From the IMG/VR virus record IMGVR_UViG_3300025647_004030, positions 1 to 21,337 of that record: a DNA stretch of 21,337 nucleotides; one strand, given 5' to 3'. The notes beneath the pieces were generated by a model. The model was not told where the DNA came from, made no database searches, and saw nothing but the letters and a program-made list of their open reading frames with translations. This DNA is from a virus. Position 1 is the stretch's first letter. Each line of letters opens with the position of its first letter. Position numbers and translations under genes: made by a program. Shown here in pieces: positions 1 through 21,337 of this stretch.

Positions 1-413
1 ATGTTCAATGCACTTTAACGTATCCTTCTGCTGATTACTCTACAACATTTACCCCTACGGGTGCGGTATCTAATTATTTATGCGTTGATGATGCTTTAGG
101 AAACCCTGATGAAGATACTACTTATGTTTCATCTTCTACTGTAGGCGGAGAAGACGAGTATTCTGTTTCCCATAGCATTACTGCAACTGATGTATACAGT
201 GTTAAAGTTAATACTCGAGCAATGAAAGACGACGTTAATCCTAGAAATTTCAAACATGGAGTTCGTACAGGATCAAATGCAAACGAAACAGAATATGTTT
301 TAGGTGAAGGATACGGTACTTATATAAATGTTTACGACGATCAAGGAAACGGTACACCGTGGGATCAATCGTCAATTGATGCTATGCGATCATTTATCCG
401 AGTTCAATCTTAA
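1..413 (+). CDS. probable phage virion/fibre-type structural protein, C-terminal part
   Basis: The open frame enters from the left edge (first full codon at base 3) and ends at TAA 411-413, giving the last 136 residues of a longer protein. The visible part is rich in Ser, Thr, Asn, Gly, Asp and Tyr, with alternating polar/hydrophobic residues suggesting beta structure, and no enzyme motif. It ends with a Gly-rich segment (VLGEGYGTYINVYDDQGNG) followed by SSIDAMRSFIRVQS. Such composition is usual in phage structural or adhesion proteins, and its place directly before the terminase fits a late-gene cluster. I do not recognise the family. The assignment to virion structure is inference from composition and context; the coding frame itself is secure because no stop interrupts it. 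Confidence 0.6.
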   Translation, partial: VQCTLTYPSADYSTTFTPTGAVSNYLCVDDALGNPDEDTTYVSSSTVGGEDEYSVSHSITATDVYSVKVNTRAMKDDVNPRNFKHGVRTGSNANETEYVLGEGYGTYINVYDDQGNGTPWDQSSIDAMRSFIRVQS

Positions 414-421
414 ATAGCCGT

Positions 422-460
422 TAGCTCCTTAACTAAATATATAAAAATATTAAGGAGCTA
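422..460 (+). promoter_or_regulatory. 11-bp perfect hairpin covering the terL Shine-Dalgarno, with late-promoter-like loop
   Basis: TAGCTCCTTAA (422-432) and TTAAGGAGCTA (450-460) are perfect inverted repeats separated by a 17-nt A/T loop. The right arm contains AAGGAG, the ribosome binding site for ATG 463. The loop reads CTAAATATATAAAAATA, close to the TAAATA-type late promoter of T4-like phages. In T4, genes e, soc and 49 use such hairpins to block translation from read-through early mRNA, while late transcripts starting inside the hairpin free the site. The structure is seen; the switch is inference. Confidence 0.6.
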
Positions 461-462
461 TT

Positions 463-1083
463 ATGGCGGCATCTGATGGTGTCTTAACTAAAAAAGCACA
501 CAAAAAAGAAACGTATACTGAACAAGAAATACAACATTTAGTAAAGTGTATGGATCCAAACACAGGATACTTACACTTTATGAAAAATTTCTATTACATT
601 CAGCACCCAGTAAAAGGGAAATTATTATTTAAACCATTTCCATATCAAGAAAGACTACTTCAAAGTTACCATAACCATCGATTCAATATCAATTTACTAT
701 CAAGGCAATGTGGGAAAACAACATGCGCTGCGGGATATTTATTATGGTATGCAATGTTTAACCCTGATCAAACAATATTAATTGCAGCTCATAAATATAC
801 CGGTGCTCAAGAAATTATGCAACGGATTAGATACGGGTATGAGTTATGCACTGACTATATTAGGGCAGGGGTAGTTAATTATAATAAACAATCTATCGAA
901 TTTGAGAACGGTTCTAGAATTGTTGCCCAAACTACAACAGCTAGTACAGGAAGGGGTATGTCTATTTCGTTGTTGTACTGTTTAGACGGTGATACTACTA
1001 CTGTTAAAGTTAGAAATAAACACACATTAGTTGAAGAAGAACTAACATTAGCAGAACTATATGGTAGACTTACCCGCAACTAA
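463..1083 (+). CDS. terL (gp17), part 1: terminase large subunit, N-terminal extein plus N-intein 1
   Basis: Residues 1-172 are the N-terminal ATPase part of a T4 gp17-type DNA packaging motor. SRQCGKTT at residues 80-87 is the Walker A motif with the T4-type SRQxGKT form. The extein stops at SISLLY, just before the Walker B acidic pair. From Cys173 (base 979) the last 34 residues are an intein N-terminal fragment starting CLDGDTTTVKV, block A of the Hint fold. The TAA at 1081 is genuine: the frame of the next ORF also carries a stop (1085-1087), so one indel cannot join them. ATG 463 follows AAGGAG with normal spacing. The product should trans-splice with the product of 1100-1840. Confidence 0.93.
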   Translation: MAASDGVLTKKAHKKETYTEQEIQHLVKCMDPNTGYLHFMKNFYYIQHPVKGKLLFKPFPYQERLLQSYHNHRFNINLLSRQCGKTTCAAGYLLWYAMFNPDQTILIAAHKYTGAQEIMQRIRYGYELCTDYIRAGVVNYNKQSIEFENGSRIVAQTTTASTGRGMSISLLYCLDGDTTTVKVRNKHTLVEEELTLAELYGRLTRN

Positions 1084-1435
1084 TTAATGGAAAGATCTTA
1101 TGAATCAAAACTATATATCAAATGACGAATACGAAATATTAACTCCTAACGGGTGGGAAGATTTTGAAGGATTAATATTCAACGAAAATGCAAACAAAAA
1201 TTCTCGTAAAATTTATTTTGACGACAACAGCTTTGTAACTGCAACAAATAATCATAGATTTTTTTCTAATAAAAAAGAAATAAAAGTGTCTGATTTAAAT
1301 GTAGGTGATACACTAGATTCATACAAATCTGTTAAGAAAATAATCAAGCTTGAAGATACGGTATTAGATCATACGTATGAGATTTTTAATGCAAAAAATC
1401 ATGTAATAATGGCAAATGAAATCAACTCCCATCAA
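979..1435 (+). other. split intein TerL-1 (34-aa N-intein, 112-aa C-intein) at Walker B
   Basis: The N-intein runs from Cys at 979 to the stop at 1081. The C-intein runs from ATG 1100 through NSHQ ending at 1435, followed by Cys+1. The C-intein has the usual post-split strand EYEILTPNGW, the TxxH of block B (TNNH, residues 49-52), the VGDTL strand and the closing EIFNAKNHVIMANEINSHQ. The last residue is Gln rather than Asn, as in a minority of inteins. The join rebuilds SISLLY-CDEFAFV, the TerL Walker B. The break directly after the first short block resembles the atypical split seen in AceL-TerL; the lengths here are read from the sequence. Confidence 0.9.
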
Positions 1436-1840
1436 TGCGATGAGTTTGCATTTGTTGCACCAAATATAGCTACAGACTTTTGGGCATCAATTTCTCCTAC
1501 ATTAGCAACAGGTGGTAAAGCTATTATTACTAGTACACCAAACTCTGACGAAGATACATTTGCAACAATTTGGCATCAAGCATTAGATAAATTTGATGAT
1601 CATGGAAATGAACAAATTATAGGAAAAAATGGATTCTTCCCATTTACGGCACATTGGAATGAACATCCTGATAGAGATGAAAAATGGAAACAAGAAGAAA
1701 TTGGAAGGATCGGTGACGAACGATTCCAACGTGAGTACGAGTGTGTAGTAGGAAATACTACTGTTACAATAGAAGATGAAAATGGAAATATTTTTATTGT
1801 TACTATTAACCAGTTATTTAATATGATGGAAAAACTATGA
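1100..1840 (+). CDS. terL (gp17), part 2: terminase large subunit, C-intein 1, middle extein, N-intein 2
   Basis: This ORF has three parts. Residues 1-112 are the C-terminal half of split intein 1. Residues 113-214 are the central TerL extein, beginning CDEFAFVAPN (Walker B Asp-Glu, D114/E115) and including IITSTPN, the motif III/coupling segment after Walker B in gp17-type terminases. Residues 215-246, starting CVVGNTTVTI, are the N-intein of a second split intein. Its start follows GGAAAG. It ends with TGA 1838-1840, sharing ATGA with the next ORF, which suggests translational coupling. The middle fragment must therefore be spliced at both ends, an uncommon architecture. Confidence 0.93.
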   Translation: MNQNYISNDEYEILTPNGWEDFEGLIFNENANKNSRKIYFDDNSFVTATNNHRFFSNKKEIKVSDLNVGDTLDSYKSVKKIIKLEDTVLDHTYEIFNAKNHVIMANEINSHQCDEFAFVAPNIATDFWASISPTLATGGKAIITSTPNSDEDTFATIWHQALDKFDDHGNEQIIGKNGFFPFTAHWNEHPDRDEKWKQEEIGRIGDERFQREYECVVGNTTVTIEDENGNIFIVTINQLFNMMEKL

Positions 1841-2304
1841 TTCATTGTCAGTACTGTAATACTCCAATGTTGATATTTACAAGTATGCAATACATGCAAT
1901 GTACAAATAAATATTGTGGTGTAAAATGGTCGTTTGATAATAAATTAATTGAGAATAATTCAGGAATGAAAGAATTAAGAAAAAATACAAAAGGGTATAA
2001 AATATTAACTCCAAACGGTTTTCAACCTTTTGCTGGTGTTAGCATGATGGGAGAAAAATATGTTATTAAATTGATATTTGAGCATAGCATAGAACTTAAA
2101 TGTACATTTAATCACAAGTTATACGTTGATTTAACTACTGTAGTAACTGCAGACGAACTAAGAATAGGTGATACAATTCTCACTAGCAAAGGTAATGTTC
2201 GACTAGTTGCAAAAGAAATTGTTGATTTCATTGAACCTGTATACGATGTTATTGAAGTAAGTAACGGACATCGATATTACACTAATACCCTATTAAGTTC
2301 GAAT
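1742..2304 (+). other. split intein TerL-2 (32-aa N-intein; C-intein with N-terminal zinc ribbon)
   Basis: The N-intein starts at Cys (1742) and ends at base 1837. The C-intein lies in the next ORF and ends in SSN at 2304, followed by Cys+1 (TGT 2305). The junction joins QREYE to CKFLVF, which I recall as the insertion position of AceL-TerL. The C-intein has YKILTPNGF, TFNH (block B TxxH, residues 90-93), IGDTILTS and VYDVIEVSNGHRYY. The residue before the terminal Asn is Ser, not the usual His. Both frames are closed near the break: the downstream frame has TAA at 1819-1821, so a simple frameshift error is excluded. Confidence 0.88.
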
Positions 2305-3057
2305 TGTAAGTTTTTAGTGTTTGACGAAACATTAATTAATTCGATAAAGTTATCGCAAATGGATGGAAAAGCACCTATTTTAAACATGGGTCAAGTTCGA
2401 TGGTACAAAAAGCCATTACCGCAGTATACATATTGTGTAGCATTAGATCCTAGTATGGGTACCGGCGGTGACTACGCGGCTATTGAAGTATTTGAATTAC
2501 CAACATATGAGCAAGTTGCAGAATGGCAACACAATACTACATCAATACCTGGACAGATTAAAATATTAACAGACATATGTAAATATATTCAATACGAATG
2601 TAACCAAACAAATAATATTTACTGGTCTGTTGAAAACAATGGAATCGGTGAAGCAGCATTAATTGTTATAAACGATTTTGGGGAAGAAAATATTCCAGGT
2701 TTATTTATATCCGAACCTATGCGGAAAGGTCATGTTAGAAAGTTTCGTAAAGGATTTAATACTACGTACAGTACAAAAATTACAGCGTGCAGTCGATTAA
2801 AAACAATGATAGAAAATGATAAAATGATAATTTGCTCTAAACCATTTATAAGCGAATTAAAAGGATTTATTGCATCGGGCTCAAGTTTTCAAGCAAAAAC
2901 TGGACTTACTGATGATTTAGTTAGTGCAGCACTTTTAGCTATACGAATGATGTCTGTATTAAAAGATTGGGATCCTAGAGTCTATAACACATTTACACAA
3001 ATGAGTCATGATGAAAATTATGAGATTCCTATGCCAATATTTATGAGCTCAATCTGA
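1837..3057 (+). CDS. terL (gp17), part 3: terminase large subunit, zinc-ribbon-tagged C-intein 2 plus nuclease extein
   Basis: Residues 1-156 precede the splice point and residues 157-406 are the C-terminal extein with the RNase H-like headful nuclease: ALDPSMGTGGDYAA (D204), YWSVENNG (E266) and LTDDLVSAAL (D359/D360) fit the acidic triad of gp17. The three exteins add to 524 residues, normal for a T4-like TerL. The first 30 residues form a Cys4 pattern, CQYC then QCTNKYC (C4, C7, C22, C27), resembling a zinc ribbon fused ahead of the C-intein. The start at 1837 has a GGA site and overlaps the preceding stop; an alternative ATG at 1966 would drop the zinc ribbon but is poorly spaced from any Shine-Dalgarno. 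Confidence 0.92.
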   Translation: MIHCQYCNTPMLIFTSMQYMQCTNKYCGVKWSFDNKLIENNSGMKELRKNTKGYKILTPNGFQPFAGVSMMGEKYVIKLIFEHSIELKCTFNHKLYVDLTTVVTADELRIGDTILTSKGNVRLVAKEIVDFIEPVYDVIEVSNGHRYYTNTLLSSNCKFLVFDETLINSIKLSQMDGKAPILNMGQVRWYKKPLPQYTYCVALDPSMGTGGDYAAIEVFELPTYEQVAEWQHNTTSIPGQIKILTDICKYIQYECNQTNNIYWSVENNGIGEAALIVINDFGEENIPGLFISEPMRKGHVRKFRKGFNTTYSTKITACSRLKTMIENDKMIICSKPFISELKGFIASGSSFQAKTGLTDDLVSAALLAIRMMSVLKDWDPRVYNTFTQMSHDENYEIPMPIFMSSI

Positions 3058-3068
3058 TAAATAATAAT

Positions 3069-4409
3069 ATGAATAGAATTAACAAAATAAGTAATGATCT
3101 TTTTAATAAAATTCGAGGAAGGTTTCCAAATGTTACTATAGGTGATAAAGATGGAAACATAACCAATAATCCGCATGACGCTAGGTTCTTTGATTTTAAT
3201 TACGAGCATAATGGAAATGAGCTCGGTGCTATTACAATTAAACTGGAAGATAATAAAATAATAATAATATTTTCAAAAGACTTTGTGTCAGATAAAGATG
3301 AAATATCAAAATCACAATGGTTTGATTTTTTAAAGGGATTAAGAGTTTTTTCAAGAAAACGTCGATTACGATTTGATGTTCGAGACATTACAAAAACAAA
3401 TTTAAATAAAAGAGATTATAAATTCTTAGCTAAACACACTGGGGAAGACCAAATGAATGAATCGGCAATGTACGGAACTTCACGAGTAAGTTACCAAAAC
3501 ATTAATAATGCAAGATTAGTTATCAAACATTCGCAACCTATTAACACAGAAAAAACTTCAAACAGATCGCATTCTGTAAACGCATTATTTATTGAAAGTA
3601 ACGAGGGTGAACGATTTAAATATCCGTTTAATCATTTAAACGGTGCTAGGGCAATGGCTAGACATGTAAGCGAAGGTGGAACACCATTTGATCAGTTTGG
3701 TCAGCATATTGTAGATTTATCAGAGGAATTAAGTAAACTTCGTAAATTTAAATCATATATGAATCGGTCAGGTGTAATGGCTGAAAGTTTGTCGCAATAT
3801 ACTGATGTTATTAAAGAACGCATGAATTATGTAAAAAAAGAAATTATGATGTTGCAAAAAGAGTCGTATTACACTGAAGCTAAAAATAACTTTAAAGAAG
3901 AAGAATACAACGATGTTCCAGATGAAATTCGAGAAAATTGGATCGATCAGTTAACTATTAAACAATTTAATGAAGAATTGGCAGACATTTTTCCTTACAT
4001 TTATAGATTAATTTCTGAAAAAACTTCAGTTAAAGAACTCGGGCCCGACGATTTTAATTTGTCTGAAGAAAGTACCGAAGATGAAAAAACAACTTCAAAA
4101 AAAGTAGGCAATACTACTGATGATAACGAAGACGATGAAAAAGATTTAGATGAATCAGTTAAACCACATACTCCACTGAGTGAGTTTATTATGAGTTTTT
4201 ATGACTCGACTACTGGGAAATTTCCAAAAGGTGAAACTGCTGTGTTAACAATGGTTGAAAAAAGTTACGGTGATCGATTTGTCACTCCGGCAAAAACATT
4301 TATCGAACGTGTAAACACAAAGTTTGAAGAATTTCATAATCAGTCATCGACTATGATTGCAGACGATACCGATCTGTTGAGAATTAAAGATTTAGCAGGT
4401 TTACAGTAA
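3069..4409 (+). CDS. conserved-looking phage protein of unknown function, 446 aa
   Basis: I do not recognise a domain with certainty. The N-terminal 120 residues are basic and beta-rich (DARFFDFNYEHNG, FSKDFVSD, GLRVFSRKRRLRFDVRDI). The middle (about 215-280) is predicted helical. Residues 345-375 form a very acidic low-complexity linker (STEDEKTTS, DDNEDDEKDLDE), before a C-terminal helical part ending DLLRIKDLAGLQ. There is no signal peptide or membrane segment. It lies between terL and a metallopeptidase gene, so a role in the capsid, packaging or late morphogenesis is possible but unproven. ATG 3069 lies 11 bases after the terL stop and has no clear Shine-Dalgarno. Confidence 0.75.
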   Translation: MNRINKISNDLFNKIRGRFPNVTIGDKDGNITNNPHDARFFDFNYEHNGNELGAITIKLEDNKIIIIFSKDFVSDKDEISKSQWFDFLKGLRVFSRKRRLRFDVRDITKTNLNKRDYKFLAKHTGEDQMNESAMYGTSRVSYQNINNARLVIKHSQPINTEKTSNRSHSVNALFIESNEGERFKYPFNHLNGARAMARHVSEGGTPFDQFGQHIVDLSEELSKLRKFKSYMNRSGVMAESLSQYTDVIKERMNYVKKEIMMLQKESYYTEAKNNFKEEEYNDVPDEIRENWIDQLTIKQFNEELADIFPYIYRLISEKTSVKELGPDDFNLSEESTEDEKTTSKKVGNTTDDNEDDEKDLDESVKPHTPLSEFIMSFYDSTTGKFPKGETAVLTMVEKSYGDRFVTPAKTFIERVNTKFEEFHNQSSTMIADDTDLLRIKDLAGLQ

Positions 4410-6666: not shown

Positions 6667-6906
6667 ATGACAAAATCATTTGACCCCAGTAAGTTCCGTA
6701 AAGAACTTACTAAATCTATCTCTGGTATGGGTTTAGGTTTTAACGATCCTACAGATTGGATTAGCACAGGTAATTATGCGTTAAATTATCTAATTTCAGG
6801 AGATTTTAATAAAGGTATCCCATTAGGTAAAGTTAGTGTATTTGCAGGAGAAAGTGGCTGCTTACCTGACTCAGCTAAAGTTATGATTCGATATAAAGAA
6901 AAATAA
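6667..6906 (+). CDS. uvsX, part 1: UvsX recombinase N-terminal extein plus 15-residue N-intein
   Basis: Residues 1-64 are the N-terminus of a RecA-type recombinase (MTKSFDPSKF, then WISTGNYALNYLISGDF and GKVSVFAGESG). The extein stops inside Walker A: GESG here continues as SGKS in the next ORF. From Cys65 (base 6859) only 15 residues remain (CLPDSAKVMIRYKEK) before TAA 6904-6906; they match the first block of an intein. The next ORF's frame is closed by TAA at 6924-6926, so one indel cannot connect them. AGGA at 6654 precedes the start. The protein should trans-splice with 6936-8060 to make the complete P-loop. Confidence 0.92.
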   Translation: MTKSFDPSKFRKELTKSISGMGLGFNDPTDWISTGNYALNYLISGDFNKGIPLGKVSVFAGESGCLPDSAKVMIRYKEK

Positions 6907-7307
6907 ATTATTAACAACATTATTAAGGTGATATTATGAATTATATCGAAAAAGAAGTAACAGTGAAAGAACTTCGCGAATTATACCATACTAATAAGTA
7001 TGATATTGAAATAAACACTCCTGACGGATATCAAACACTGGGAAAATGGTTTGATAAGGGAGCTCTTAAAATGGTTAAAGTATGTACTCAGTCTTTTGAA
7101 ACAGTGTGTGCAGTAAACCATCTTGTCCAGTTAGATGATGATTCTTGGGTACAAGCAAGCGATCTAGAACTAGGAATGAAAGTCCAAACACTAAATGGTG
7201 TTGAATCAGTTATTGATATAACTAATCAAAAAGACGCCGAATGTTATGATTTTGAAGTTTTACATAATAATCATAGGTATTACGGCGACGGTATTGTTAG
7301 TCACAAT
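6859..7307 (+). other. split intein UvsX-1 with ultra-short N-intein, inside Walker A
   Basis: The N-intein is 15 residues (6859-6903) and the C-intein 124 residues (6936-7307). The C-intein starts with KEVTVKELRELYHT, a segment that lies in the N-intein half of the TerL-1 intein here (EELTLAELYGRL), so the break is one strand earlier. It goes on with YDIEINTPDGYQ, the block B region AVNH (Ala in place of the usual Thr of TxxH), LELGMKV, CYDFEVLHNNHRYY and GIVSHN followed by Ser+1. Splicing joins GESG to SGKSF. The only comparably short natural N-intein I recall is VidaL (about 16 residues). Confidence 0.9.
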
Positions 7308-8060
7308 TCAGGCAAATCATTTATATGTTCAGGAAACATAATCAAACATGCTCAAAAACAAGGTATTTTTGTAATTTTAATCGATTCTGAAAATTCCTTA
7401 GACTCTGACTGGTTAACTGCTCTTGGAGTTGATATAGACGAGTCAAAACTATTAAAACTAAATATGGCAATGATCGACGATGTTGCAAAAACTATTTCCA
7501 TTTTTATTAAAGATTACAAAGAATTGCCAGAAGAAGATCGACCTAAAGTATTATTTGTAATCGATTCGTTAGGTATGCTAATGAGCCCGACAGAAGTTAA
7601 TCAGTTTGACTCAGGTGATATGAAAGGCGATATGGGTCGTAAAGCTAAAGCATTGAAAGCACTTGTAACAAATTGTGTTAATATGTTTGGATCTCATAAT
7701 ATTGGATTAGTTGCTACAAATCATACATATGCTAGTCAAGACATGTTTGACCCTGATGATAAAATTGCAGGAGGATGTTTAACTGCTGGCCATAAAGTGC
7801 AAATGGCAGATGGCTCATTGAAAAACATTGAAGATATTCAAATCAACGATACTGTTGTTACCCTTGAAGGCGATTTTAATGTTGAAAAGACATTTGAATT
7901 TAATGATAAAGAAGTGTTTGAAATTGAATTAGAAACTGGTGAAATTATTCAAGCAACCGGTGAACATAAGTTTTTAACACAAGTAAACGGTAGTCAACTA
8001 GTATGGAAAACACTTGCTGAGTTATCAGTAGATGATGAAATTTTACGAGTAGGCGTCTAA
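6936..8060 (+). CDS. uvsX, part 2: UvsX C-intein 1, central extein, N-intein 2
   Basis: Residues 1-124 are the C-intein of UvsX-1. Residues 125-280 are the RecA-core extein: SGKSF finishing Walker A, ILIDSENSLD, VLFVIDSLG (Walker B Asp210), KGDMGRKAKALKALV, VATNHTYASQDMF and KIAGG at the end of the L2 DNA-binding loop region. Residues 281-374, beginning CLTAGHKVQMADGSLKNIED, are the 94-residue N-half of a second intein, including block B TGEH (residues 61-64 of the intein half). AAGGTG ahead of ATG 6936 is a strong ribosome site. Both ends need trans-splicing before a working recombinase exists. Confidence 0.93.
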   Translation: MNYIEKEVTVKELRELYHTNKYDIEINTPDGYQTLGKWFDKGALKMVKVCTQSFETVCAVNHLVQLDDDSWVQASDLELGMKVQTLNGVESVIDITNQKDAECYDFEVLHNNHRYYGDGIVSHNSGKSFICSGNIIKHAQKQGIFVILIDSENSLDSDWLTALGVDIDESKLLKLNMAMIDDVAKTISIFIKDYKELPEEDRPKVLFVIDSLGMLMSPTEVNQFDSGDMKGDMGRKAKALKALVTNCVNMFGSHNIGLVATNHTYASQDMFDPDDKIAGGCLTAGHKVQMADGSLKNIEDIQINDTVVTLEGDFNVEKTFEFNDKEVFEIELETGEIIQATGEHKFLTQVNGSQLVWKTLAELSVDDEILRVGV

Positions 8061-9758
8061 CAAATGACAAAAGATGAATTGCAACAGTACGTTGAAAATA
8101 CTACTAATTTAGCCGCGTTGTCACGAGTAGTTAAATTACGCAATCCATCTTTATATCAAGAAATATTAGATTCGTGGAGTTTTAGTGATCCGTATGCTAA
8201 CTTTGTCGAAGCGGTTAACTATTACTTAAAAATGGAAAGTATATATTGTATGTACGGACATCGTATGAAGTTTAATGGGTATCATAACGAATATACTTGT
8301 AAGAAAAATTGTCAGCACTCGATTAATAAGAAACATAATACCATGATGGAAAAGTACGGTGTCGAACATGCACATCAGTCTGATAAAATTAAAGAAAAAT
8401 TTAAAGATACACTTCTTAAACGATACGGTAGTGATAGTTTATACAAAGCATTTAATGAAAAAAGAACCGCTACTAATATTAAGAAATTTGGTCATAAAAC
8501 ACCATTAGAATCATTAGAGATACACAATAAAACCGTAAAAACGTATCGTGAAAATACTGGCTTTTCTAATCCATTTTGTAAGTTTAATTCAGAAGAATAT
8601 CGAGCGGAGTTTAGAAAAAAAGCAATTGAAACATATCAAACAAATAATCCTAAACTATACGACTATAAGTTAATATACGATACTCTTAGTGAAAATTCTT
8701 ATACTAAAGCTAGTCAAATATTGGGATTATATCCAGCACATTTAAAAAATGTTGCTACTCAAATGAATTGGGAACACTTATTACCTAAAAAGTCATCGTA
8801 TGAACAGTTAGTTGAACAATTCTTGGTTAATAACAACCAAAAATTTGTAATAAACACTAGAAGCATTATTGCTCCATACGAATTGGACTTTTACTTACCT
8901 GATTTGAAAGTTGCAATTGAAATTAATGGGTTGCGGTGGCATAGTGAACATTTTGCTAATAAAGATAGATATTATCATTTGCAAAAAACAAAACTATGCA
9001 AAGAGAAAGATATTCGTTTAATACATATATTTGAAGATGAATTTAATAATCATCAGGAAACAGTTTTTTCTATTATTAGTACCGTATGTGGAATACCAAA
9101 ACATAAAGTATATGGTAGAAAAACACAGGTAAAAGAAATAAGTAGTAGTGAAGCACGACAGTTCTGTGAAAAGTATCATTTACAAAAGTATGCCTCTGCT
9201 AGTATTAAGTATGGAGCGTACTATGAAAATAAATTACTAGCAGTAATGACGTTTAAACGAGATCGTGATTCAATATATGAACTAAGTAGATACTGTGTTC
9301 ATCCTGAATATATGTTAATAGGAATAGCTCAAAAAATGTTTTCTGCCTTTTTAGCAGCTAACGTACATTCTGAAATATATACATACAGTGACAATAGATA
9401 CTTTACTGGAAATCTATACGAACAACTGGGATTTAAATATGTTCACGATACTTTACCTAATTACTGGTATTTTAATGATTCAACCGTTAGACATCATCGA
9501 CTTAGGTTTACAAAGCAACGGTTAGTTAAAAATGGAGGGAATCCTAATTTAACTGAGTGGGAAATAATGAAAGATAACGGCTATGATCGCATTTGGGATT
9601 GTGGCAGCAAAAAATGGGTCTATAAAGAGGATATTTAAATGAATTTAAAAAAAGCAAAAATTAAAAGCAAAAAAAGTATTGGTATACAACCGGTGTATGA
9701 TATTTGTGTACCAGATGCACATCATTACTTATTAGATAGTGGAATTGTAAGTCATAAC
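7776..9758 (+). other. canonical split intein UvsX-2 with endonuclease gene between its halves
   Basis: The N-intein is 94 residues (7776-8057) and the C-intein 40 residues (9639-9758), the classical split position in the loop where homing endonucleases normally sit. The C-intein carries GIQPVYDICVPDAHHYLL and GIVSHN, followed by Ser+1. Splicing joins KIAGG to SGFIYASS, matching the RecA segment after loop L2. The intervening 8064-9638 ORF is an independent homing-endonuclease gene with its own start and stop, i.e. the fractured-gene layout described from marine metagenomes (Dassa et al. 2009). Confidence 0.92.
8064..9638 (+). CDS. EDxHD (Vsr-like) homing endonuclease, free-standing within the split intein
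   Basis: A 524-residue protein. Residues 85-190 carry repeated target-recognition-like units (KYGVEHAHQS, KRYGSDSLYK, KKFGHKTPLE). Residues 245-335 form the Vsr/EDxHD nuclease: SYEQLVEQFL (E247), YELDFYLPD (D275), VAIEINGLRWHSE (E286, H293), NKDRYYHLQKT (D301), then IRLIHIFEDEF. This fits the I-Bth0305I/I-TslI class. Residues 385-470 look GNAT-like (LLAVMTFKRD, ELSRYCVHPEY, NLYEQLGFKYV), as in other phage endonucleases of this class. It begins three bases after the N-intein stop and ends directly at the C-intein ATG. It probably cuts an intein-free uvsX allele to spread the element; the target site is not visible from sequence alone. Confidence 0.88.
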   Translation: MTKDELQQYVENTTNLAALSRVVKLRNPSLYQEILDSWSFSDPYANFVEAVNYYLKMESIYCMYGHRMKFNGYHNEYTCKKNCQHSINKKHNTMMEKYGVEHAHQSDKIKEKFKDTLLKRYGSDSLYKAFNEKRTATNIKKFGHKTPLESLEIHNKTVKTYRENTGFSNPFCKFNSEEYRAEFRKKAIETYQTNNPKLYDYKLIYDTLSENSYTKASQILGLYPAHLKNVATQMNWEHLLPKKSSYEQLVEQFLVNNNQKFVINTRSIIAPYELDFYLPDLKVAIEINGLRWHSEHFANKDRYYHLQKTKLCKEKDIRLIHIFEDEFNNHQETVFSIISTVCGIPKHKVYGRKTQVKEISSSEARQFCEKYHLQKYASASIKYGAYYENKLLAVMTFKRDRDSIYELSRYCVHPEYMLIGIAQKMFSAFLAANVHSEIYTYSDNRYFTGNLYEQLGFKYVHDTLPNYWYFNDSTVRHHRLRFTKQRLVKNGGNPNLTEWEIMKDNGYDRIWDCGSKKWVYKEDI

Positions 9759-10184
9759 TCAGGTTTTATCTATGCGTCTTCTATTGTAGTAGCAATGAAA
9801 AAATTAAAATTAAAAGAAGATGAAGATGGTAATAAAACTTCTGAGGTATTAGGTATTCGATCAGCATGTAAAGTGATGAAAACTAGATATGCAAAACCAT
9901 TTGAAGGTGTGCAAGTTAAAATTCCATATGATCGCGGCATGGATCCATATTCAGGTTTAGTTGACTTATTTGAAAAACGAGGATTATTACAAAAAACTGG
10001 AAATCGGTTACGATATGTTGATCCTCAAGGAAATGAACATATTGAATTTCGTAAAATATGGCATCATTGGCAGAAATTAGATATGATTATGAAAGACTTT
10101 AGTTCAAAAGAAAAAATGGTAAATAACTCTGAAGTTGTTGAAGAATTGGCAACTGATACAGAGGAGAATATTACACATGAATGA
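9639..10184 (+). CDS. uvsX, part 3: UvsX C-intein 2 plus C-terminal extein
   Basis: Residues 1-40 are the C-intein (basic leader MNLKKAKIKSKKS, then the closing Hint strands and GIVSHN). Residues 41-181 are the UvsX C-terminus: SGFIYASSIVVAMKKLKL, SACKVMKTRYAKPF, VQVKIPYDRGMDPYSGLVDL (the T4 UvsX GGIDPYSGL segment) and an acidic tail. The exteins sum to 361 residues, close to T4 UvsX (391). GAGG precedes ATG 9639. The stop overlaps the next start by eight bases. Bases 10053-10081 are a perfect copy of the gp32 start region in another frame. Confidence 0.92.
   Translation: MNLKKAKIKSKKSIGIQPVYDICVPDAHHYLLDSGIVSHNSGFIYASSIVVAMKKLKLKEDEDGNKTSEVLGIRSACKVMKTRYAKPFEGVQVKIPYDRGMDPYSGLVDLFEKRGLLQKTGNRLRYVDPQGNEHIEFRKIWHHWQKLDMIMKDFSSKEKMVNNSEVVEELATDTEENITHE
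10053..10081 (+). repeat. 29-bp perfect direct repeat, copy 2 (uvsX 3' region)
   Basis: Identical to 5603-5631. Here it is read as KIWHHWQKL in the UvsX C-terminal part, whereas the other copy is the gp32 start codon and first codons. The flanks diverge immediately on both sides. Confidence 0.95.
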
Positions 10185-10890: not shown

Positions 10891-11829
10891 ATGATAGAAT
10901 TATCAACAGTATACATGGGAATTGGGTTTTTATTAGCAGCATATTCTGTAATCGCAAACGACAGTGTTCAAACTTTAGGAACATTTATGTCCTCTAACAG
11001 TAAAGTTAGATGGCAATACTTATGGATTGCAGCGTCGATTGTATTAGTTGGAACTTTGGGATATAGCTGGTACATGTACAATGGAGATATTTCCTTTGGT
11101 AGATTAACGAAAATTCCATATCAAGAAGTTCAGTGGTATCATGCGTTAGCTCCTGGGTTATTATTGATATTAACTAGATTTGGAGTTCCAGTATCAACCT
11201 CATTTTTAGTGTTATCAGCATTTGCATCATCTCTTGTATTAGAGAAAATGCTATTAAAGTCAGTTATTGGATATATTATTGCAGCAATATTTGCATATGC
11301 TTTATGGTTTATTGTTGCAAGATTTTTAGACGAGTCAAAGAAAGTTCGCGAAGAAGCAAACAATACATGGAAAGTTGCACAGTGGTGTAGTACAGGTTTA
11401 TTATGGTTTATGTGGCTTTCACATGATATGGCTAATATTGCTGTATTTTTACCTAGAGAATTATCAGTACTACATTTGTGTATTGTATTATTTGTATTTG
11501 TAAGTTTATTAGCGGTTATGTTTTACGAACGAGGTGGAAAAATTCAATCAATAGTAAAACAAAAAACATCAACAAAATTTATTAGATCTGCTACTATTGT
11601 AGATTTAGCGTATGCGTTTATACTGTGGTATTTTAAAGAACTAAACAATATACCAATGTCTACAACATGGGTTTTTGTAGGATTATTAGCAGGACGAGAG
11701 TTTGCTATTGCAACAGTTACTAATAAAAAAATGAAAAATGTATTTCCAATGGTTAGGCGTGATTTTGCTAAGATGACTATTGGACTATTAGCGTCGATTG
11801 GTATTGCTGTTAGTGTGCATTATCTTTAA
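10891..11829 (+). CDS. PiT-family (PHO4-type) inorganic phosphate permease
   Basis: A 312-residue integral membrane protein with about eight to ten hydrophobic segments and the inverted-repeat signature of PiT transporters. In the first half VIANDSVQTLGTF (N23-D24) is followed by FGVPVSTSFLVLSAF (97-111). In the second half WLSHDMANIAVFL (H178-D179) is followed by NIPMSTTWVFVGLLAGRE (253-270). In PiT proteins the paired ND and P-S-T motifs make the phosphate and cation sites. It is short compared with bacterial PitA (about 500) but near compact archaeal-type members. A good AAAGGT site precedes ATG 10891. It is probably an auxiliary metabolic gene that raises phosphate uptake during infection. 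The His in place of Asn in the second ND motif is unusual. Confidence 0.75.
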   Translation: MIELSTVYMGIGFLLAAYSVIANDSVQTLGTFMSSNSKVRWQYLWIAASIVLVGTLGYSWYMYNGDISFGRLTKIPYQEVQWYHALAPGLLLILTRFGVPVSTSFLVLSAFASSLVLEKMLLKSVIGYIIAAIFAYALWFIVARFLDESKKVREEANNTWKVAQWCSTGLLWFMWLSHDMANIAVFLPRELSVLHLCIVLFVFVSLLAVMFYERGGKIQSIVKQKTSTKFIRSATIVDLAYAFILWYFKELNNIPMSTTWVFVGLLAGREFAIATVTNKKMKNVFPMVRRDFAKMTIGLLASIGIAVSVHYL

Positions 11830-11830
11830 T

Positions 11831-12526
11831 ATGAAAACATATATTATTCGATTAAAAGAAAACAAACACTCCTGTACAATGGCGCAGGAGTGCTTTGATA
11901 AAGCAGTTAATAATGGATTATCACCTATTTTTTTTGATGCAATTGATGGAAATTATGCTAAAGAATTATATAAAGAAACTAATATTTTTCCAGCAATGAA
12001 ATTCAAAAAAAATAGATTAGGCGTATTAGGATGCTTTTTTAGTCATTATAAATTATGGGAAATGTGCGCTTCAACAGATGAACCATTTTTAATATTGGAA
12101 CACGATGGTTATATGTTAAAACCATTACCTGAAAATATATTTGATTTGTTTACTGATGTGTTGAAATTGGATCGTCTTGATCCATATAGTTCAAAATATA
12201 ATACCCAATTATTATCCGAAGATACATTACCGATTACTATTGAAAAGTATTATAATCCAAAAGCTAAAATATTAAAAACTAAAAAGTTTAATGGAACTGG
12301 CAACTATTTCAAAGGCGCATACGCATACATATTAAAACCTTTAGGAGCACAAAAACTTTTAGAGTTTATTAAAGAGCACGGACATGTTCCTGCTGATCAA
12401 CAAATAGGTGATTTAGTATTAGACACATATACAACTGTTCCAAGTATTGCACGATTGCACCCGTATTATTCAATCGGTGATAATATTAATTCAGCAAGTT
12501 TAACTAAACATTTGGAGAAAAAATAA
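11831..12526 (+). CDS. glycosyltransferase family 25-like (LPS-type)
   Basis: 231 residues from ATG 11831, one base after the permease stop; an upstream in-frame ATG at 11798 lies inside that gene and is rejected. The start MKTYIIRLKENK, the GVLGCFFSHYKLWEMC block (64-79) and FLILEHDGYM (acidic E90/D92 motif) are the hallmarks of GT25 beta-glycosyltransferases. GNYFKGAYAYILKPLGAQKLL and VPADQQIGDLV match the later family blocks. It probably adds a sugar to a lipo-oligosaccharide-like acceptor or virion glycan. It opens a block of carbohydrate genes, and its stop overlaps the next ATG by one base. An 8-bp inverted repeat (11867-11892) lies near its 5' end. Confidence 0.8.
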   Translation: MKTYIIRLKENKHSCTMAQECFDKAVNNGLSPIFFDAIDGNYAKELYKETNIFPAMKFKKNRLGVLGCFFSHYKLWEMCASTDEPFLILEHDGYMLKPLPENIFDLFTDVLKLDRLDPYSSKYNTQLLSEDTLPITIEKYYNPKAKILKTKKFNGTGNYFKGAYAYILKPLGAQKLLEFIKEHGHVPADQQIGDLVLDTYTTVPSIARLHPYYSIGDNINSASLTKHLEKK

Positions 12527-13185
12527 TGTGGAGTTTACCGACAAGAGGAAGACCAAGTAGTTTAAAACGATTTATAGATGCATATGTAGATACTAAAGGA
12601 TCATCTGCTGTTTATGTAAGACTAGACGAAGATGACCCATTTTTAACTGAATATCTAAAGTTACAATTTCCTAAAAGTTTTATAATCAATGTTGGTCCTA
12701 GAGAAGGACTAAAAGCTGCAATGGAAGAAATGTTTAAAAAATATCCTAACGAAGATTGGTATGGGTTAGGTGCCGACGATATTGTTCCTCGAACGGACTT
12801 TTGGGATAAAGAGCTTGCAACTGAAGCAGGACTAAGAAAAATTGCTCATCCAGATGACTTGGGAAAAAGAAAGAAAAAGCACTTACCAACTCATCCGGTA
12901 TGTGGAGGAGATTTAGTAAGAGCAGTTGGATGGTTTGGACATCCAGCAACTGTTCATTTTTTTCTTGATAATAGTTGGCAGTTTGTTGGAGAAGGATTAA
13001 ATTGCATTACATTACGTGAAGATATTGTTGTAGAACATTTACATCATTCTTTAGGAAAATCACAATTAGATAGTACTTATAAAGAAGTGAATACTAAAAT
13101 GGAATCCGATAGAGCTAATTACAACGCATGGATAGAAGAACATGGAACCGCTTTATTAGCACGGTTAAAATCTCAAGGTTTTTAA
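12526..13185 (+). CDS. GT-A-type glycosyltransferase-like protein
   Basis: 219 residues. MWSLPTRGRPSSLKRFIDAY resembles the first strand and helix of GT2-like enzymes, and WYGLGADDIVPRTDFWD (78-94) has an Asp pair (D84-D85) where the metal/nucleotide-sugar DxD motif is expected. The middle contains PVCGGDLVRAVGWFG, and later a possible acceptor region HFFLDNSWQFVGE, followed by EDIVVEHLHHSLGK. This is a compact family seen in aquatic phages; sugar and acceptor are unknown. It shares one base with the GT25-like stop. The FkbM gene follows after a 64-base gap with nothing notable beyond an AAGG ribosome site. Confidence 0.7.
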   Translation: MWSLPTRGRPSSLKRFIDAYVDTKGSSAVYVRLDEDDPFLTEYLKLQFPKSFIINVGPREGLKAAMEEMFKKYPNEDWYGLGADDIVPRTDFWDKELATEAGLRKIAHPDDLGKRKKKHLPTHPVCGGDLVRAVGWFGHPATVHFFLDNSWQFVGEGLNCITLREDIVVEHLHHSLGKSQLDSTYKEVNTKMESDRANYNAWIEEHGTALLARLKSQGF

Positions 13186-13249
13186 AATGACAACACACTT
13201 GTTTTATACAAATTGCATGATTTAGCCAAAATAAGGCAACTAACATATT

Positions 13250-13900
13250 ATGAAAAAAACTAAATTTGATTATCGAGAAATTTTAGGAAAAACGTGGAAA
13301 TGGTCTGCTACTGATAAGAAAGCATGGAAATACTTAACTAATTCAGATCATTTAAAATTTCCAGAAACAATTTCATCAATGATTCCATCGCATCGTACAG
13401 TGATTCAAGCAGGAGGACATTGTGGATTATATCCTTATCAATATGCATCGTTTTTTGACACAGTGTATACATACGAGCCTAGTATTATTAATTATGAATG
13501 TTTAGTAGAAAATACTAAGGAAATTTCAAATATTAAAATCATTAACAAAGGTTTAGGAAATACATCAAAACTAGTTTCAATGAATGAAAATAGGAAAAAT
13601 ACTGGAAATCATTCAATTAATGAGTCGGAAAGTGGAAGTATTGAAATAACTACAATAGATAGTCAACTTTTGTCTGAAGTTGACTTAATTCATTTAGATT
13701 TAGAAGGTTATGAGAAGTTTGCACTAGAAGGAGCCGAAAATACTATTAAACAGTGCAAACCTCTAATAGTATTAGAAACTAATGATTGTTGTTTAAATTA
13801 CGGGTATACTCTCGATGACTTAACTCAATATTTAAACACATTAGGATATAAGTCTATAATGCAGTGGGAAAATGACCAGGCGTATGCATACTGTAATTAA
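13250..13900 (+). CDS. FkbM-family SAM-dependent methyltransferase
   Basis: 216 residues with the Rossmann methyltransferase pattern of FkbM proteins: VIQAGGHCGLYP (motif I, 51-62), VYTYEPSIINYECL (acidic end of beta 2, E76), IKIINKGLGN, then IEITTIDSQL and LIHLDLEGYEKFALEGA (146-162, the characteristic FkbM DxEG block). These enzymes usually O-methylate sugars, so it probably caps or modifies glycans made by the surrounding glycosyltransferases. ATG 13250 has AAGG upstream. Its 3' end overlaps the oppositely oriented sulfotransferase gene by 47 bases. Confidence 0.85.
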   Translation: MKKTKFDYREILGKTWKWSATDKKAWKYLTNSDHLKFPETISSMIPSHRTVIQAGGHCGLYPYQYASFFDTVYTYEPSIINYECLVENTKEISNIKIINKGLGNTSKLVSMNENRKNTGNHSINESESGSIEITTIDSQLLSEVDLIHLDLEGYEKFALEGAENTIKQCKPLIVLETNDCCLNYGYTLDDLTQYLNTLGYKSIMQWENDQAYAYCN

Positions 13901-14498
13901 ACCGTTTGAAATCATTAGCATACACTTTATTTAATAAGCTGATATTTCTGTGTGTAAATGGAAATGGTTTTTTATACGAAGACTGATTGTTCTTTTTAAC
14001 AAACTTATGTGTTAATTTCAACATTGTTTTCAAATCGCACATAAACGGTTTAAACCCATCTTCCAACTTATAGATATTTACACTATTACATCCTTCTATA
14101 TATAAATGTTGTGGACAAAAATGACGGTATAAATCGTCATTTTCAGAAAGAGTAGGATAAACGTCAGTTAAAAATGTTTCATAAGAATATTCTTTATGTA
14201 AATATCTATAATAAAATGCACTTTTAAATCGTTCATATGGATTTCGAACAAATGTAAATATGTTGTAATTACATATATCATCTTCATTGATTAGATTAAA
14301 TTTGATATATTCTTTAAAAAATAAATGATGATATTGTTGAGGTCCTGGTAAAGATAAATCTTGATTTGATATTAATCCATACGATGAATTGTCTAATGTG
14401 TATGGAACATTTATATTTTCAAATAAAAATTCATATATTGACTGACCAGCAGTTTTTGGAATATGTACAAATAGTAGTTTTTGTTGAGGAAGTATCAT
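13854..14498 (-). CDS. sulfotransferase-family protein (PAPS-dependent), antisense to the operon
   Basis: The only convincing minus-strand gene, 214 residues. LLFVHIPKTAGQSIYEFLFE (residues 8-27) is the 5'-phosphosulfate-binding loop of membrane-type carbohydrate sulfotransferases, and FTFVRNPYERFKSAFYYRYL (81-100) contains the 3'-phosphate-binding Arg and Ser. There is no N-terminal membrane anchor, so it would be soluble. It probably sulfates a sugar of host or virion glycan, using host PAPS. It converges on the FkbM gene with a 47-base 3' overlap, and upstream reads CTAAATAA (minus strand), a possible late promoter very close to the start. It looks like a separately acquired insertion into the + strand block. 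Confidence 0.8.
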   Translation of the reverse strand: MILPQQKLLFVHIPKTAGQSIYEFLFENINVPYTLDNSSYGLISNQDLSLPGPQQYHHLFFKEYIKFNLINEDDICNYNIFTFVRNPYERFKSAFYYRYLHKEYSYETFLTDVYPTLSENDDLYRHFCPQHLYIEGCNSVNIYKLEDGFKPFMCDLKTMLKLTHKFVKKNNQSSYKKPFPFTHRNISLLNKVYANDFKRFNYSMHTPGHFPTAL

Positions 14499-14565
14499 AC
14501 ATTTATTTAGTTGACTATTTTTTGCATACTAAATACGAATGATATAAACTAGCGAGATTTAAGAT

Positions 14566-15333
14566 ATGAAAAAAATTGTACTATGTACTGGAGGATATGA
14601 TCCTATTCATTCTGGCCATATTGCGTCGTTTAAAGAATCAAAATGTTTAGGAGATTACTTAATAGTAGGTCTAAATTCCGATGAATGGTTAGCACGAAAA
14701 AAAGGAAAACCGTTTATGCCAATGCACGAACGTATGTGTATTGTAAACAACTTGGAAATGGTAGATCAAACGATAACATTTTCTGACGACGATAATACTG
14801 CATGTGATGCTATCGAATGTTGTTTAGCACAATATCCTGATTATGAAATTATATTTGCAAATGGTGGAGATAGAGAATCGACTAATATTCCCGAATATAT
14901 TAAATATAAAGATAACAGTAGAGTCACGTTTAAATTTGGAGTTGGCGGATCGACAAAGAAAAATAGTTCTTCTTGGATATTAGAGGAATATAAAAATCCA
15001 AAAGTTGAAAGACCGTGGGGCTGGTATAGAGTCTTAAATGATAAAAAAATATACAAAGTTAAAGAACTAGTGATCCAACCCCATAAACAATTGTCAGTTC
15101 AAAGACATACTAATAGAGCTGAACATTGGTATGTGTTAAGCGGCGAATGCGTTGTATATACTGAATGGATGGACTTGCCTTATACAACAACATTACGTGC
15201 AAACGACACAGGGTACGTAATTCAGCCAGGTGTATGGCATCAAGGGATAAATCAAACTGACAACCCCTGTTATATATTAGAAGTTCAATATGGACTAGAG
15301 TGTGTCGAAGATGACATAGAACGGAGAGATTAA
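14566..15333 (+). CDS. cytidylyltransferase fused to a phosphomannose-isomerase-type cupin
   Basis: A two-domain fusion of 255 residues. Residues 1-140 are a nucleotidyltransferase: LCTGGYDPIHSGHIASFKES carries HxGH (H15-H18), followed by VGLNSDEWLARKKGKP, the substrate loop FANGGDRESTN and KKNSSSWIL, matching HldE/TagD-like cytidylyltransferases. Residues 148-250 are a cupin of the type II mannose-6-phosphate isomerase kind: ERPWGWYR, IQPHKQLSVQRHTNRAEHW, GYVIQPGVWHQGINQ, with metal-type His residues H173, H181, H187 and H225. It may make an activated sugar-alcohol or sugar for the neighbouring transferases. ATG 14566 has little Shine-Dalgarno. Its stop overlaps the next start by one base. 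Confidence 0.85.
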   Translation: MKKIVLCTGGYDPIHSGHIASFKESKCLGDYLIVGLNSDEWLARKKGKPFMPMHERMCIVNNLEMVDQTITFSDDDNTACDAIECCLAQYPDYEIIFANGGDRESTNIPEYIKYKDNSRVTFKFGVGGSTKKNSSSWILEEYKNPKVERPWGWYRVLNDKKIYKVKELVIQPHKQLSVQRHTNRAEHWYVLSGECVVYTEWMDLPYTTTLRANDTGYVIQPGVWHQGINQTDNPCYILEVQYGLECVEDDIERRD

Positions 15334-16010: not shown

Positions 16011-16011
16011 T

Positions 16012-19433: not shown

Positions 19434-20630
19434 ATGATAGATAAACAATTAATCAATAATAGCATTGTATCTGCAATGACTACTATTAAGACACTTACTC
19501 GCACTGAACACTGTGTGTTAACTCGCAGTAATCGTCTTTTGTTAAAAGAAACGAAGTTATCAAATGTGTTGTATCAACATATTTTAATAATCTTTGTAAA
19601 ACATGGGTATACAATTAACGACTCTATTACACTGGAACAATTAAAAGAATGGCTATTTAATTTATCAAATGATTCGATTAATTATGCTAATATAAATTGT
19701 ATAACTCGAAACATTAGTATTGTTGGAACACTTTCTAATAAAGAAATTAAACAAATTTGTAATATAATGCCAACTCATGTAGAACAATTTAAACTAGAAA
19801 ATAACTTAACTCGAATATATTTTTTTGCAATAGTTGAGTACGTAATTCCACCTATAGTAATAGGATTACTTGGAAAAAATATATATGTCGAAGATACATT
19901 ATTAGAAATGTATTTTCAAGTAAATGATTGTTTAACGCAATCTGAGAAATATTTATGCGGTATTAAAGACAATAAGCTGCATAATATTCCTAAAGAACTA
20001 AATGAGATCATTGTTAATGAAATAGGTGAGATAAATGAATCCACATATCTTAAATATGTAGATCGAAAATTTAGATATGGGTTTAATCTAGTACCTAAAC
20101 TGAAAGGTACGTCGTTAGTTGAGAAAATTGCTAATAGAGATTCTGTAGCAATGTATCATCCGTTAGATTGCAATAATATTACTAACTTACTAGATGCACT
20201 AATGCTACTAGATCGAACCCCAATACTAGTTGCTACTAGATCATCTAGCGGGTCTGCAATTACTAACATTGCAAAGTATCTAGAACCAAAAATACCATTA
20301 GAACAGCAGTGTTGTTTGATTGATTCAACAAACTCCTCTAATCAGCAAATTATTTATTCAAATACACAACTAGCAAATGAGATAAAAGAACTAAAGTTAT
20401 CTAAATTAATCAAAGCAGATACTAAAATAGTTTACGTTTCAGCAGTGCAATTACCAAACATCTTACTAAAAATATCATGGAAGCCTAGTACAGCACTAAT
20501 CGTTGATGCTCCTCTTTTCTCTAAAATAATAGCTTATATAACCATGCACTGCGACTTAATTATTCACGAAAGTCTTTACCTTAATACAATTTATGGAATT
20601 AACAATGGAACATTGCAAACTAATTATTAA
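19434..20630 (+). CDS. unrecognised protein of 398 aa upstream of uvsW
   Basis: From ATG 19434 (a GTG at 19422 is possible). I see no diagnostic domain. The first part is helical (MIDKQLINNSIVSAMTTIKT). The middle has an Asn/Ile-rich region and a Cys-poor run. Residues near 250-275 read LLDALMLLDRTPILVATRSS and GSAITNIAKYL, suggesting an alpha/beta fold, followed by KIVYVSAVQLPNILLKIS. This may be a Rossmann-like or helicase-associated domain, but I cannot name one. It has its own promoter and overlaps the 5' end of uvsW, so it may be expressed with it. Confidence 0.65.
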   Translation: MIDKQLINNSIVSAMTTIKTLTRTEHCVLTRSNRLLLKETKLSNVLYQHILIIFVKHGYTINDSITLEQLKEWLFNLSNDSINYANINCITRNISIVGTLSNKEIKQICNIMPTHVEQFKLENNLTRIYFFAIVEYVIPPIVIGLLGKNIYVEDTLLEMYFQVNDCLTQSEKYLCGIKDNKLHNIPKELNEIIVNEIGEINESTYLKYVDRKFRYGFNLVPKLKGTSLVEKIANRDSVAMYHPLDCNNITNLLDALMLLDRTPILVATRSSSGSAITNIAKYLEPKIPLEQQCCLIDSTNSSNQQIIYSNTQLANEIKELKLSKLIKADTKIVYVSAVQLPNILLKISWKPSTALIVDAPLFSKIIAYITMHCDLIIHESLYLNTIYGINNGTLQTNY

Positions 20631-21132
20631 CGACGAAGTAAACATTAAATTTGAAGGATTGCCTGTCGATGTTAGGCGAAAAATAGCATCAGCATTAAAG
20701 TTTCAAGTACCATATGCTAAGTATATGCCACAATATAAATTAGGTAGGTGGGACGGAACTGTTGCATTTTTTGGAATTGGCGGAGTAGGGTATCTTAATC
20801 ATTTGCCTACTATAATTGAGATATTAGCTAATAACAATATAGAAATTTCAGAAATTGAAGATAACCGAAATTTAGTTCAACTAAATTTCAGCGAGATTAC
20901 ATCAAGATTTTGGGCAGATCAGAATGTTAGATGGCCAGAAGGGCATCCTGCTGAAAATGAAGAAATTATGCTTAGAGATCATCAAGTAGATGTAATTAAT
21001 GCATTTTTAAAAAATCCACAAGCATTACAAGAAGTAGCAACTGGAGCTGGAAAATGTTTAACATACGATTCTACTATAATGATTGATGTTGAAAATAAAG
21101 ACTTTTATAATTTTATGATAAACAACATCTAA
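20605..21132 (+). CDS. uvsW, part 1: UvsW helicase N-terminal extein plus 25-aa N-intein
   Basis: From ATG 20605 (preceded by GGA; the ATG at 20593 has no Shine-Dalgarno) the extein has about 150 residues. It begins with the UvsW N-terminal domain (VDVRRKIASALKFQV, YMPQYKLGRWDGTVAFFG, matching T4 FRYGNWDGRI). It continues with the helicase Q/motif I region LRDHQVDVINAFL and EVATGAGK. At that Lys of Walker A an intein begins: CLTYDSTIMIDVENKDFYNF, ending MINNI at TAA 21130. The protein remodels branched DNA and unwinds recombination intermediates with UvsX. It overlaps the preceding gene by 26 bases. Confidence 0.85.
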   Translation: MEHCKLIINDEVNIKFEGLPVDVRRKIASALKFQVPYAKYMPQYKLGRWDGTVAFFGIGGVGYLNHLPTIIEILANNNIEISEIEDNRNLVQLNFSEITSRFWADQNVRWPEGHPAENEEIMLRDHQVDVINAFLKNPQALQEVATGAGKCLTYDSTIMIDVENKDFYNFMINNI

Positions 21133-21337
21133 TAGTAATGCTAACACTGTTACAATCATTAAACTTTTAAATAACTATTACAAGAGAAACTTGATGAAAT
21201 TTAGCACACACATAGGCAAACTAGCACACATTATCGAAAAATATAAAGGAATTAAGTTAAAAGATAATGTTGAAGAAGATATTAGAGATCTTAAATGTAC
21301 AGTTAAAACACCGTCAGGTGACACTGGTATTAACTAT
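21055..21337 (+). other. intein in UvsW Walker A, probably split (third atypical kind)
   Basis: The 25-residue N part starts at Cys 21055. The probable C-intein begins at ATG 21194 (AAGAGA before it) and runs off the window: MKFSTHIGKLAHIIEKYKGI, then DIRDLKCTVKTPSGDTG, the usual strand before block B. Unlike the other breaks, no stop closes the downstream frame between 21128 and 21194, so a single frameshift could also explain the gap. The split reading is favoured by the four other split inteins. Confidence 0.72.
21194..21337 (+). CDS. uvsW, part 2: UvsW part 2: C-intein, partial at window end
   Basis: This frame is open from ATG 21194 to the edge (48 codons). It contains intein-like sequence ending TPSGDTGINY. 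The UvsW C-terminal extein, starting within Walker A with Thr or Ser, must lie beyond the window. The start is inferred from AAGAGA (21183-21188) and from the analogous layout in terL and uvsX. Confidence 0.6.
   Translation, partial: MKFSTHIGKLAHIIEKYKGIKLKDNVEEDIRDLKCTVKTPSGDTGINY

What the first reader, a model, noticed from the sequence alone, without database searches (positions are those of the whole stretch)
463..3057. One terminase gene broken into three separately translated pieces by two split inteins
TerL exteins of 172, 102 and 250 residues lie in three ORFs, each with its own start. All catalytic motifs are conserved once the pieces are joined, so this is not decay: both frames are closed at the break points and intein motifs are intact. 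The middle piece must splice at both ends. Two inteins in one three-part motor enzyme would need orthogonal pairing, so the two short N-inteins must choose the correct C-intein.
Basis: partly seen in the sequence, partly recalled or inferred. Interest (0 to 1): 0.82.

Follow-up and report, generated by a model that had tools for sequence, protein, structure and literature searches.

The report
Phage terminase in three spliced pieces
This phage encodes its DNA-packaging motor enzyme as three separate proteins that almost certainly stitch themselves together through two different split inteins; this is a more extreme form of a known arrangement, and relatives suggest it is the leftover of homing-endonuclease genes that broke the gene and were later lost.

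Summary
TerL lies in three ORFs (463-1083, 1100-1840, 1837-3057) with exteins of 172, 102 and 250 residues. Joined, they match unbroken TerLs of related phages end to end at 65-80% identity; 77 of 80 relatives lack both inserts. Each break carries an intein split right after its first helix (N-parts 34 and 32 aa). The second matches CatC (PDB 6dsl), the consensus of GOS-TerL and AceL-TerL. Trans-splicing is the best explanation (0.9); no splicing was measured.
It is not unique: 12 sequence-distinct TerLs are broken at both sites, three of them in four pieces. Relatives show the series empty site, split intein plus homing-endonuclease gene, split intein without it, re-fused contiguous intein. 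The window keeps about 13 terminal codons of a lost endonuclease gene at site B, and the intein-B halves are 86-89% identical in DNA to relatives whose flanking exteins are mostly 60-80% identical: horizontal movement as a unit.
Orthogonal pairing is plausible but unproven: the two pairs share about 23% identity and have opposite charge patterns. The same 21 kb also breaks UvsX twice (one VidaL-type intein) and UvsW at least once, so five split inteins coexist.

The parts
463..1083 (+). terL-a: extein 1 (172 aa, to ...ISLLY at 978) plus N-intein B (979-1080, 34 aa, CLDGDTTTVKVRNKHTLVEEELTLAELYGRLTRN)
   Evidence: 5' AAGGAG ribosome site
1081..1139 (+). site-B spacer and fossil end of a homing-endonuclease gene: TTAATGGAAAGATCTTATGAATCAAAACTATATATCAAATGA reads LMERSYESKLYIK*, equivalent to the end of the endonuclease ORF of L085/L086, overlapping the C-intein start; the GGAAAG ribosome site lies in it
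   Evidence: comparison of spacer and C-intein start; read by eye
1100..1840 (+). terL-b: C-intein B (1100-1435, 112 aa, ends NSHQ) plus extein 2 (1436-1741, 102 aa, CDEFAF...REYE) plus N-intein C (1742-1837, 32 aa)
   Evidence: best fold match 6dsl, Cat atypical split intein
1837..3057 (+). terL-c: about 44-aa CxxC...CxxxxC head (1837-1965), C-intein C (1966-2304), extein 3 (2305-3054, nuclease domain); ATGA overlap with terL-b suggests translational coupling
   Evidence: CatC 6dsl_B, E 7.2e-14
6667..6906 (+). uvsX-a: UvsX N-terminal extein plus 15-aa N-intein (CLPDSAKVMIRYKEK) splitting Walker A
6936..8060 (+). uvsX-b: VidaL-type C-intein plus middle extein plus canonical long N-intein (CLTAGHKVQ...)
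   Evidence: VidaL 6vgv, E 4.6e-54
8064..9638 (+). free-standing homing endonuclease gene (phrog_3339; weak Vsr/DUF559 similarity) lying between the halves of the second UvsX intein
9639..10184 (+). uvsX-c: C-intein (ends VSHN|S) plus C-terminal UvsX extein
20593..21132 (+). uvsW-a: UvsW N-terminal part to GAGK (Walker A) plus 25-aa N-intein; a C-intein-like ORF starts near 21194 and runs off the window

Best explanation
One T4-type large terminase is encoded in three cistrons and rebuilt by two protein trans-splicing reactions. Extein 1 carries N-intein B; the middle protein carries C-intein B, extein 2 and N-intein C; the third protein carries C-intein C and extein 3. N-B docks into C-B and N-C into C-C, each forming a complete HINT domain, and class-1 splicing (Cys1 and Cys+1 at both junctions) joins Y172-C173 and E274-C275 to give the 524-residue motor. 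Both are atypically split inteins with the break just after the first helix. The break is a relic: homing endonuclease genes sat in the middle of the inteins, split them and spread them, and were then deleted, leaving two independently translated halves. Shown here: ORFs, junctions, homology, HINT fold match, selection on the site-B halves, endonuclease-bearing relatives, endonuclease fossil at site B. Inferred: splicing itself, its order and its pairing specificity, and the order of evolutionary steps (for site C the past endonuclease is inferred from relatives only).
For: Joined exteins align to unbroken relatives across both junctions. Pfam and PHROG TerL hits on all three ORFs. C-intein C hits CatC 6dsl at E 7.2e-14 in an alignment that runs through the +1 Cys; C-intein B hits it at 1.3e-6. 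Model of terL-b: best fold match 6dsl, E 6.1e-7, target TM 0.61. Ka/Ks about 0.1 for both halves of intein B against L085/L086. Both halves of intein B 86-89% identical in DNA to L083/L085 while flanking exteins are mostly 60-80% in 60-nt windows, with sharp edges; pS 0.34-0.45 against 0.83-0.92 for extein 1. Same double break in 12 distinct TerLs; most site-B splits have a roughly 0.9-kb gap, usually holding an ORF of about 290-310 aa, between the halves. Fossil endonuclease 3' end in the window. Ribosome-binding sites before the pieces.
Against: No splicing product has been seen. Site-B C-intein ends in Gln, which may splice more slowly than Asn. The terL-b model is low-confidence (mean pLDDT 58). 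The middle piece could be cyclised if N-intein C paired with C-intein B. Selection on the site-C halves is less clear because synonymous sites are near saturation.
Confidence: 0.9

Rival explanations
1. The three pieces reassemble non-covalently into a working terminase, as the split NrdA of phage Aeh1 does, and the intein halves are inert relics.
For: PMC2988022 describes Aeh1 NrdA and phage 25 gene 43 working as separate polypeptides after endonuclease insertion or splitting.
Against: Those cases are not described there with inteins; here both halves of the site-B intein are under purifying selection, and the broken relatives examined carry intein halves at the breaks. The site-B break lies at the Walker B strand, so unspliced intein tails would sit in the active site.
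Confidence: 0.05
2. Pseudogene or assembly error: the terminase is decaying or the breaks are sequencing frameshifts in contiguous inteins.
For: Contiguous versions of the site-B intein exist (L053, L107), so one frameshift could mimic a split.
Against: Stop codon, frame change, ribosome site and fossil endonuclease end at site B; the same splits in many independent contigs, most with a coding gap between halves; low Ka/Ks in both intein-B halves.
Confidence: 0.03
3. Cross-reactive inteins: splicing happens, but N-B also pairs with C-C (skipping extein 2) or N-C pairs with C-B (cyclising extein 2), so part of the product is misassembled and the level of active TerL is limited.
For: All four halves belong to the same atypical intein group; the review PMC11766414 reports that GOS-TerL and AceL-TerL N-fragments can be exchanged; site-B N-inteins have changed C partner in evolution.
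Against: N-B versus N-C and C-B versus C-C are only about 23% identical in the window and carry opposite charges (N-B +2, C-B head -6; N-C -3, C-C head +4).
Confidence: 0.15

Closest known systems
AceL-TerL, GOS-TerL and the consensus Cat intein (PDB 6dsl)
   Same: Same kind of host gene; N-part about 25-37 aa split after helix 1; HINT fold; C-intein C matches CatC at E 7.2e-14, alignment running through the +1 Cys.
   Different: Described as one split intein per gene; here a second, divergent split intein (site B, Walker B strand, C-terminal Gln) breaks the same gene, giving a middle piece that must splice at both ends. That site C is exactly the AceL insertion point was not checked against the original paper.
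Fractured genes (Dassa et al. 2009, cited in PMC6892783 and PMC13014065; the paper itself is not held)
   Same: Phage enzyme genes broken by split inteins; UvsX of this window with its free-standing endonuclease fits the pattern.
   Different: TerL here has no endonuclease in either break; only a fossil of one at site B.
VidaL intein (PDB 6vgv)
   Same: First UvsX intein of the window is a close relative (E 4.6e-54).
   Different: N-part here is 15 aa; VidaL's is 16 aa (PMC13014065).
Split DNA polymerase B of jumbo phage MIJ3 (PMC6892783)
   Same: Jumbo phage with a putative split intein and an HNH endonuclease gene between the parts; its TerL is among the nearest named relatives.
   Different: One break, different gene.
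Aeh1 NrdA genes-in-pieces (PMC2988022)
   Same: Phage enzyme encoded in pieces after endonuclease insertion.
   Different: Works as separate polypeptides, no intein described.

Membership tests
Atypical (S2-site) split intein, AceL/GOS/Cat-TerL type | HINT fold similar to Cat/AceL | tested here: met
   6dsl best fold match for terL-b; sequence hits E 7.2e-14 (C) and 1.3e-6 (B)
Atypical (S2-site) split intein, AceL/GOS/Cat-TerL type | N-part of about 25-37 aa ending after helix 1 | tested here: met
   34 and 32 aa; helix at residues 24-38 in the contiguous relative's model, low confidence
Atypical (S2-site) split intein, AceL/GOS/Cat-TerL type | Nucleophiles Cys/Ser at 1 and Cys/Ser/Thr at +1, block B TxxH, C-terminal Asn or Gln | tested here: met
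   Cys1 and Cys+1 at both; TNNH and TFNH; C-terminal Gln at B, Asn at C (reading)
Atypical (S2-site) split intein, AceL/GOS/Cat-TerL type | Trans-splicing activity | not testable with these tools
   needs expression
Fractured gene (Dassa type) | Free-standing endonuclease gene between the intein halves | tested here: not met
   TerL spacers in the window are 16 nt and an overlap (-4); met for UvsX site 2 in the window and for most TerL relatives
T4-type large terminase | ATPase and nuclease domains | tested here: met
   PF03237 on ORFs 1 and 2, PF17289 on ORF 3, all above cut-off
VidaL intein (UvsX site 1) | Sequence match and ultra-short N-part | tested here: met
   E 4.6e-54; N-part 15 aa

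The most novel reading that the evidence does not exclude
A natural network of at least five mutually orthogonal split inteins in 21 kb of one phage assembles three important enzymes (TerL in three, UvsX in three, UvsW in at least two pieces), with pairing at the two TerL sites held apart by an opposite charge pattern, and with TerL of relatives reaching four pieces.
Probability: 0.6. Interest if true: 0.68.

Novelty: new variant of a known kind. Interest (0 to 1): 0.52.

Why it matters
It gives natural, co-existing pairs of the short-N split inteins that protein chemists use for labelling, with a built-in test of orthogonality, since mispairing would skip or cyclise the middle extein of an essential motor. 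The series of relatives (empty, split with endonuclease, split without, re-fused) lets one test how split inteins arise and why the split persists after the endonuclease is gone.

Tried and rejected
Zn-ribbon head of terL-c as a remnant of the site-C endonuclease: a profile of nine endonuclease ribbons gave no significant match in the window (best window hits E 1.7-2.1, decoys reach 0.9), so its origin is left open. RNA-level splicing: no Rfam family in the window and no room for an intron in 16- and -4-nt spacers. Plasmid records: no match. The promoter scan of 1-3200 gave no excess over shuffles. Dassa 2009 and the GOS-TerL paper were not held. The literature searches run turned up no description of a natural gene in three pieces with two split inteins in the titles, abstracts and passages I looked at, but most subscription papers are not held.

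Full report
Observation. The three ORFs and the stated extein lengths are exact. PF03237 (terminase ATPase part) covers ORFs 1 and 2, PF17289 (nuclease part) ORF 3, and intein families hit the C-intein regions. The joined 524-aa protein aligns to unbroken TerLs of related phages over its whole length at 65-80% identity; of 80 loci fetched with ORF 1, 77 have no insert over the covered part, L001 has both breaks, L053 has one, as a contiguous intein, and one more (L079) has only a small discontinuity elsewhere (L079 is counted among the 77 or 78 without inserts). The nearest named phages are jumbo phages related to PA5oct and MIJ3 (60% over extein 1). The window is an IMG/VR virus fragment of 21,337 bases.

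Inteins. Site B (172|173, at the Walker B strand, LLY|CDEFAF) and site C (274|275, REYE|CKFLV) each hold an intein split after the first helix. C-intein C matches CatC (6dsl, the consensus built from GOS-TerL and AceL-TerL according to PMC11766414) at E 7.2e-14; C-intein B at 1.3e-6. The model of terL-b, though of low confidence, has 6dsl as its best match in the PDB. PMC13014065 places the AceL and GOS splits after helix 1 and the VidaL split after strand 2; the window has both kinds. C-intein B ends in Gln, as do most of its site-B relatives.

Selection and movement. Against L085 and L086 both halves of intein B give Ks 0.46-0.68 and Ka/Ks about 0.1, whereas extein 1 is saturated (pS 0.83-0.92). 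DNA identity is 86-89% inside both intein halves and mostly 60-80% in the flanking exteins, with sharp edges (the script stopped at L085's extein 2 because that contig ends there, so this rests on L083 and L085). This is what homing of a unit predicts, and indicates that both halves are kept functional. For site C synonymous change is near saturation, so the same claim cannot be made as strongly.

How the break arose. In most site-B relatives with a split, an ORF of about 290-310 aa lies in a 0.9-kb gap between the intein halves. In L085 and L086 the end of that ORF overlaps the start of the C-intein; the window keeps this stretch (LMERSYESKLYIK*, against LMERFYESKLYIK* in L085) although the rest of the gene is gone (read by eye). 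L091 at site C seems to join the 5' and 3' ends of the endonuclease gene of L001 across a 76-nt spacer. L053 and L107 are contiguous, and still contain the former C-intein start codon and, in L107, the endonuclease tail. The simplest order is invasion, spread, endonuclease loss, then either a persistent split (the window) or re-fusion. This order is an inference.

Recurrence. 12 sequence-distinct TerLs are broken at both B and C. L128, L138 and L142 have a third split intein at site A (85|86, Walker A), so four pieces. Hence the window is one case of a recurrent pattern. Loci were found with intein queries, so they say nothing about how common the state is; the unbiased figure is 2 of 80, whose query also held the N-intein.

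Pairing. In the window N-B versus N-C and C-B versus C-C share about 23% identity. Net charge of N-intein residues 4-18 is +2 for B and -3 for C; a 22-residue head of the C-intein is -6 for B and +4 for C. Over 35 site-B and 13 site-C loci the means are +1.7 and -3.9 against -1.2 and +1.0 (some site-C heads were mislocated by the script, and the loci are not independent). Cognate pairs should attract and crossed pairs repel. Whether these residues touch was not tested. As a caution, very similar site-B N-inteins (81-87%) occur with two C-intein subtypes only about 30% identical.

Surroundings. UvsX is broken twice: a VidaL-type intein in Walker A and a canonical split intein with its endonuclease still between the halves. 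UvsW starts with a piece ending in a 25-aa N-intein. A C-intein profile finds five places in the window, two of which are the two parts of one UvsX intein; with the UvsW N-intein that makes five split inteins by my count.

Verdict. It is a new variant of a known kind: split-intein TerL is known; two or three split inteins in one TerL was not found described in the papers I could search. Splicing and orthogonality remain to be measured.

Noticed in passing
L001, L083, L085, L087, L094, L101-L104, L113, L119, L122, L126, L134, L137 and others, just after the site-B N-intein: The endonuclease cassette begins with a near copy (mostly 12-17 of 18 nt) of the start of extein 2 (GAYRARTTTGCATTTGTA) running into a T4-late-promoter-like TATAAATA; 31 of 56 site-B split loci fit a pattern for copy plus TAAATA. 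This resembles the I-TevI operator, a homing-site copy overlapping its late promoter (PMC2988022), and suggests an autorepressor site.
   Followed up: partly
L053:6057-6111 and L107:809-890: The linker of the contiguous (re-fused) site-B inteins contains an inverted repeat (for example CAGTTGATAATGTT...AACATTATCAACTG in L107), as if the endonuclease deletion was healed by fold-back copying.
   Followed up: partly
window 1837-1965: About 44-aa head on terL-c with CxxC...CxxxxC, not seen before the other site-C C-inteins compared; origin unknown, not significantly similar to the endonuclease Zn ribbons.
   Followed up: yes
L090, L113, L116: A large contiguous intein (over 300 aa) at TerL site A inside Walker A; L113 and L116 also have a split intein at site B.
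   Followed up: no
window 11798-19412: A run of ORFs between UvsX and UvsW that by their sequence look like glycosyltransferase, methyltransferase and nucleotidyltransferase genes; not searched.
   Followed up: no
L135:5631-5975 (site C): The site-C N-intein is fused in frame to a truncated endonuclease-like N-terminal domain, another decay state.
   Followed up: partly
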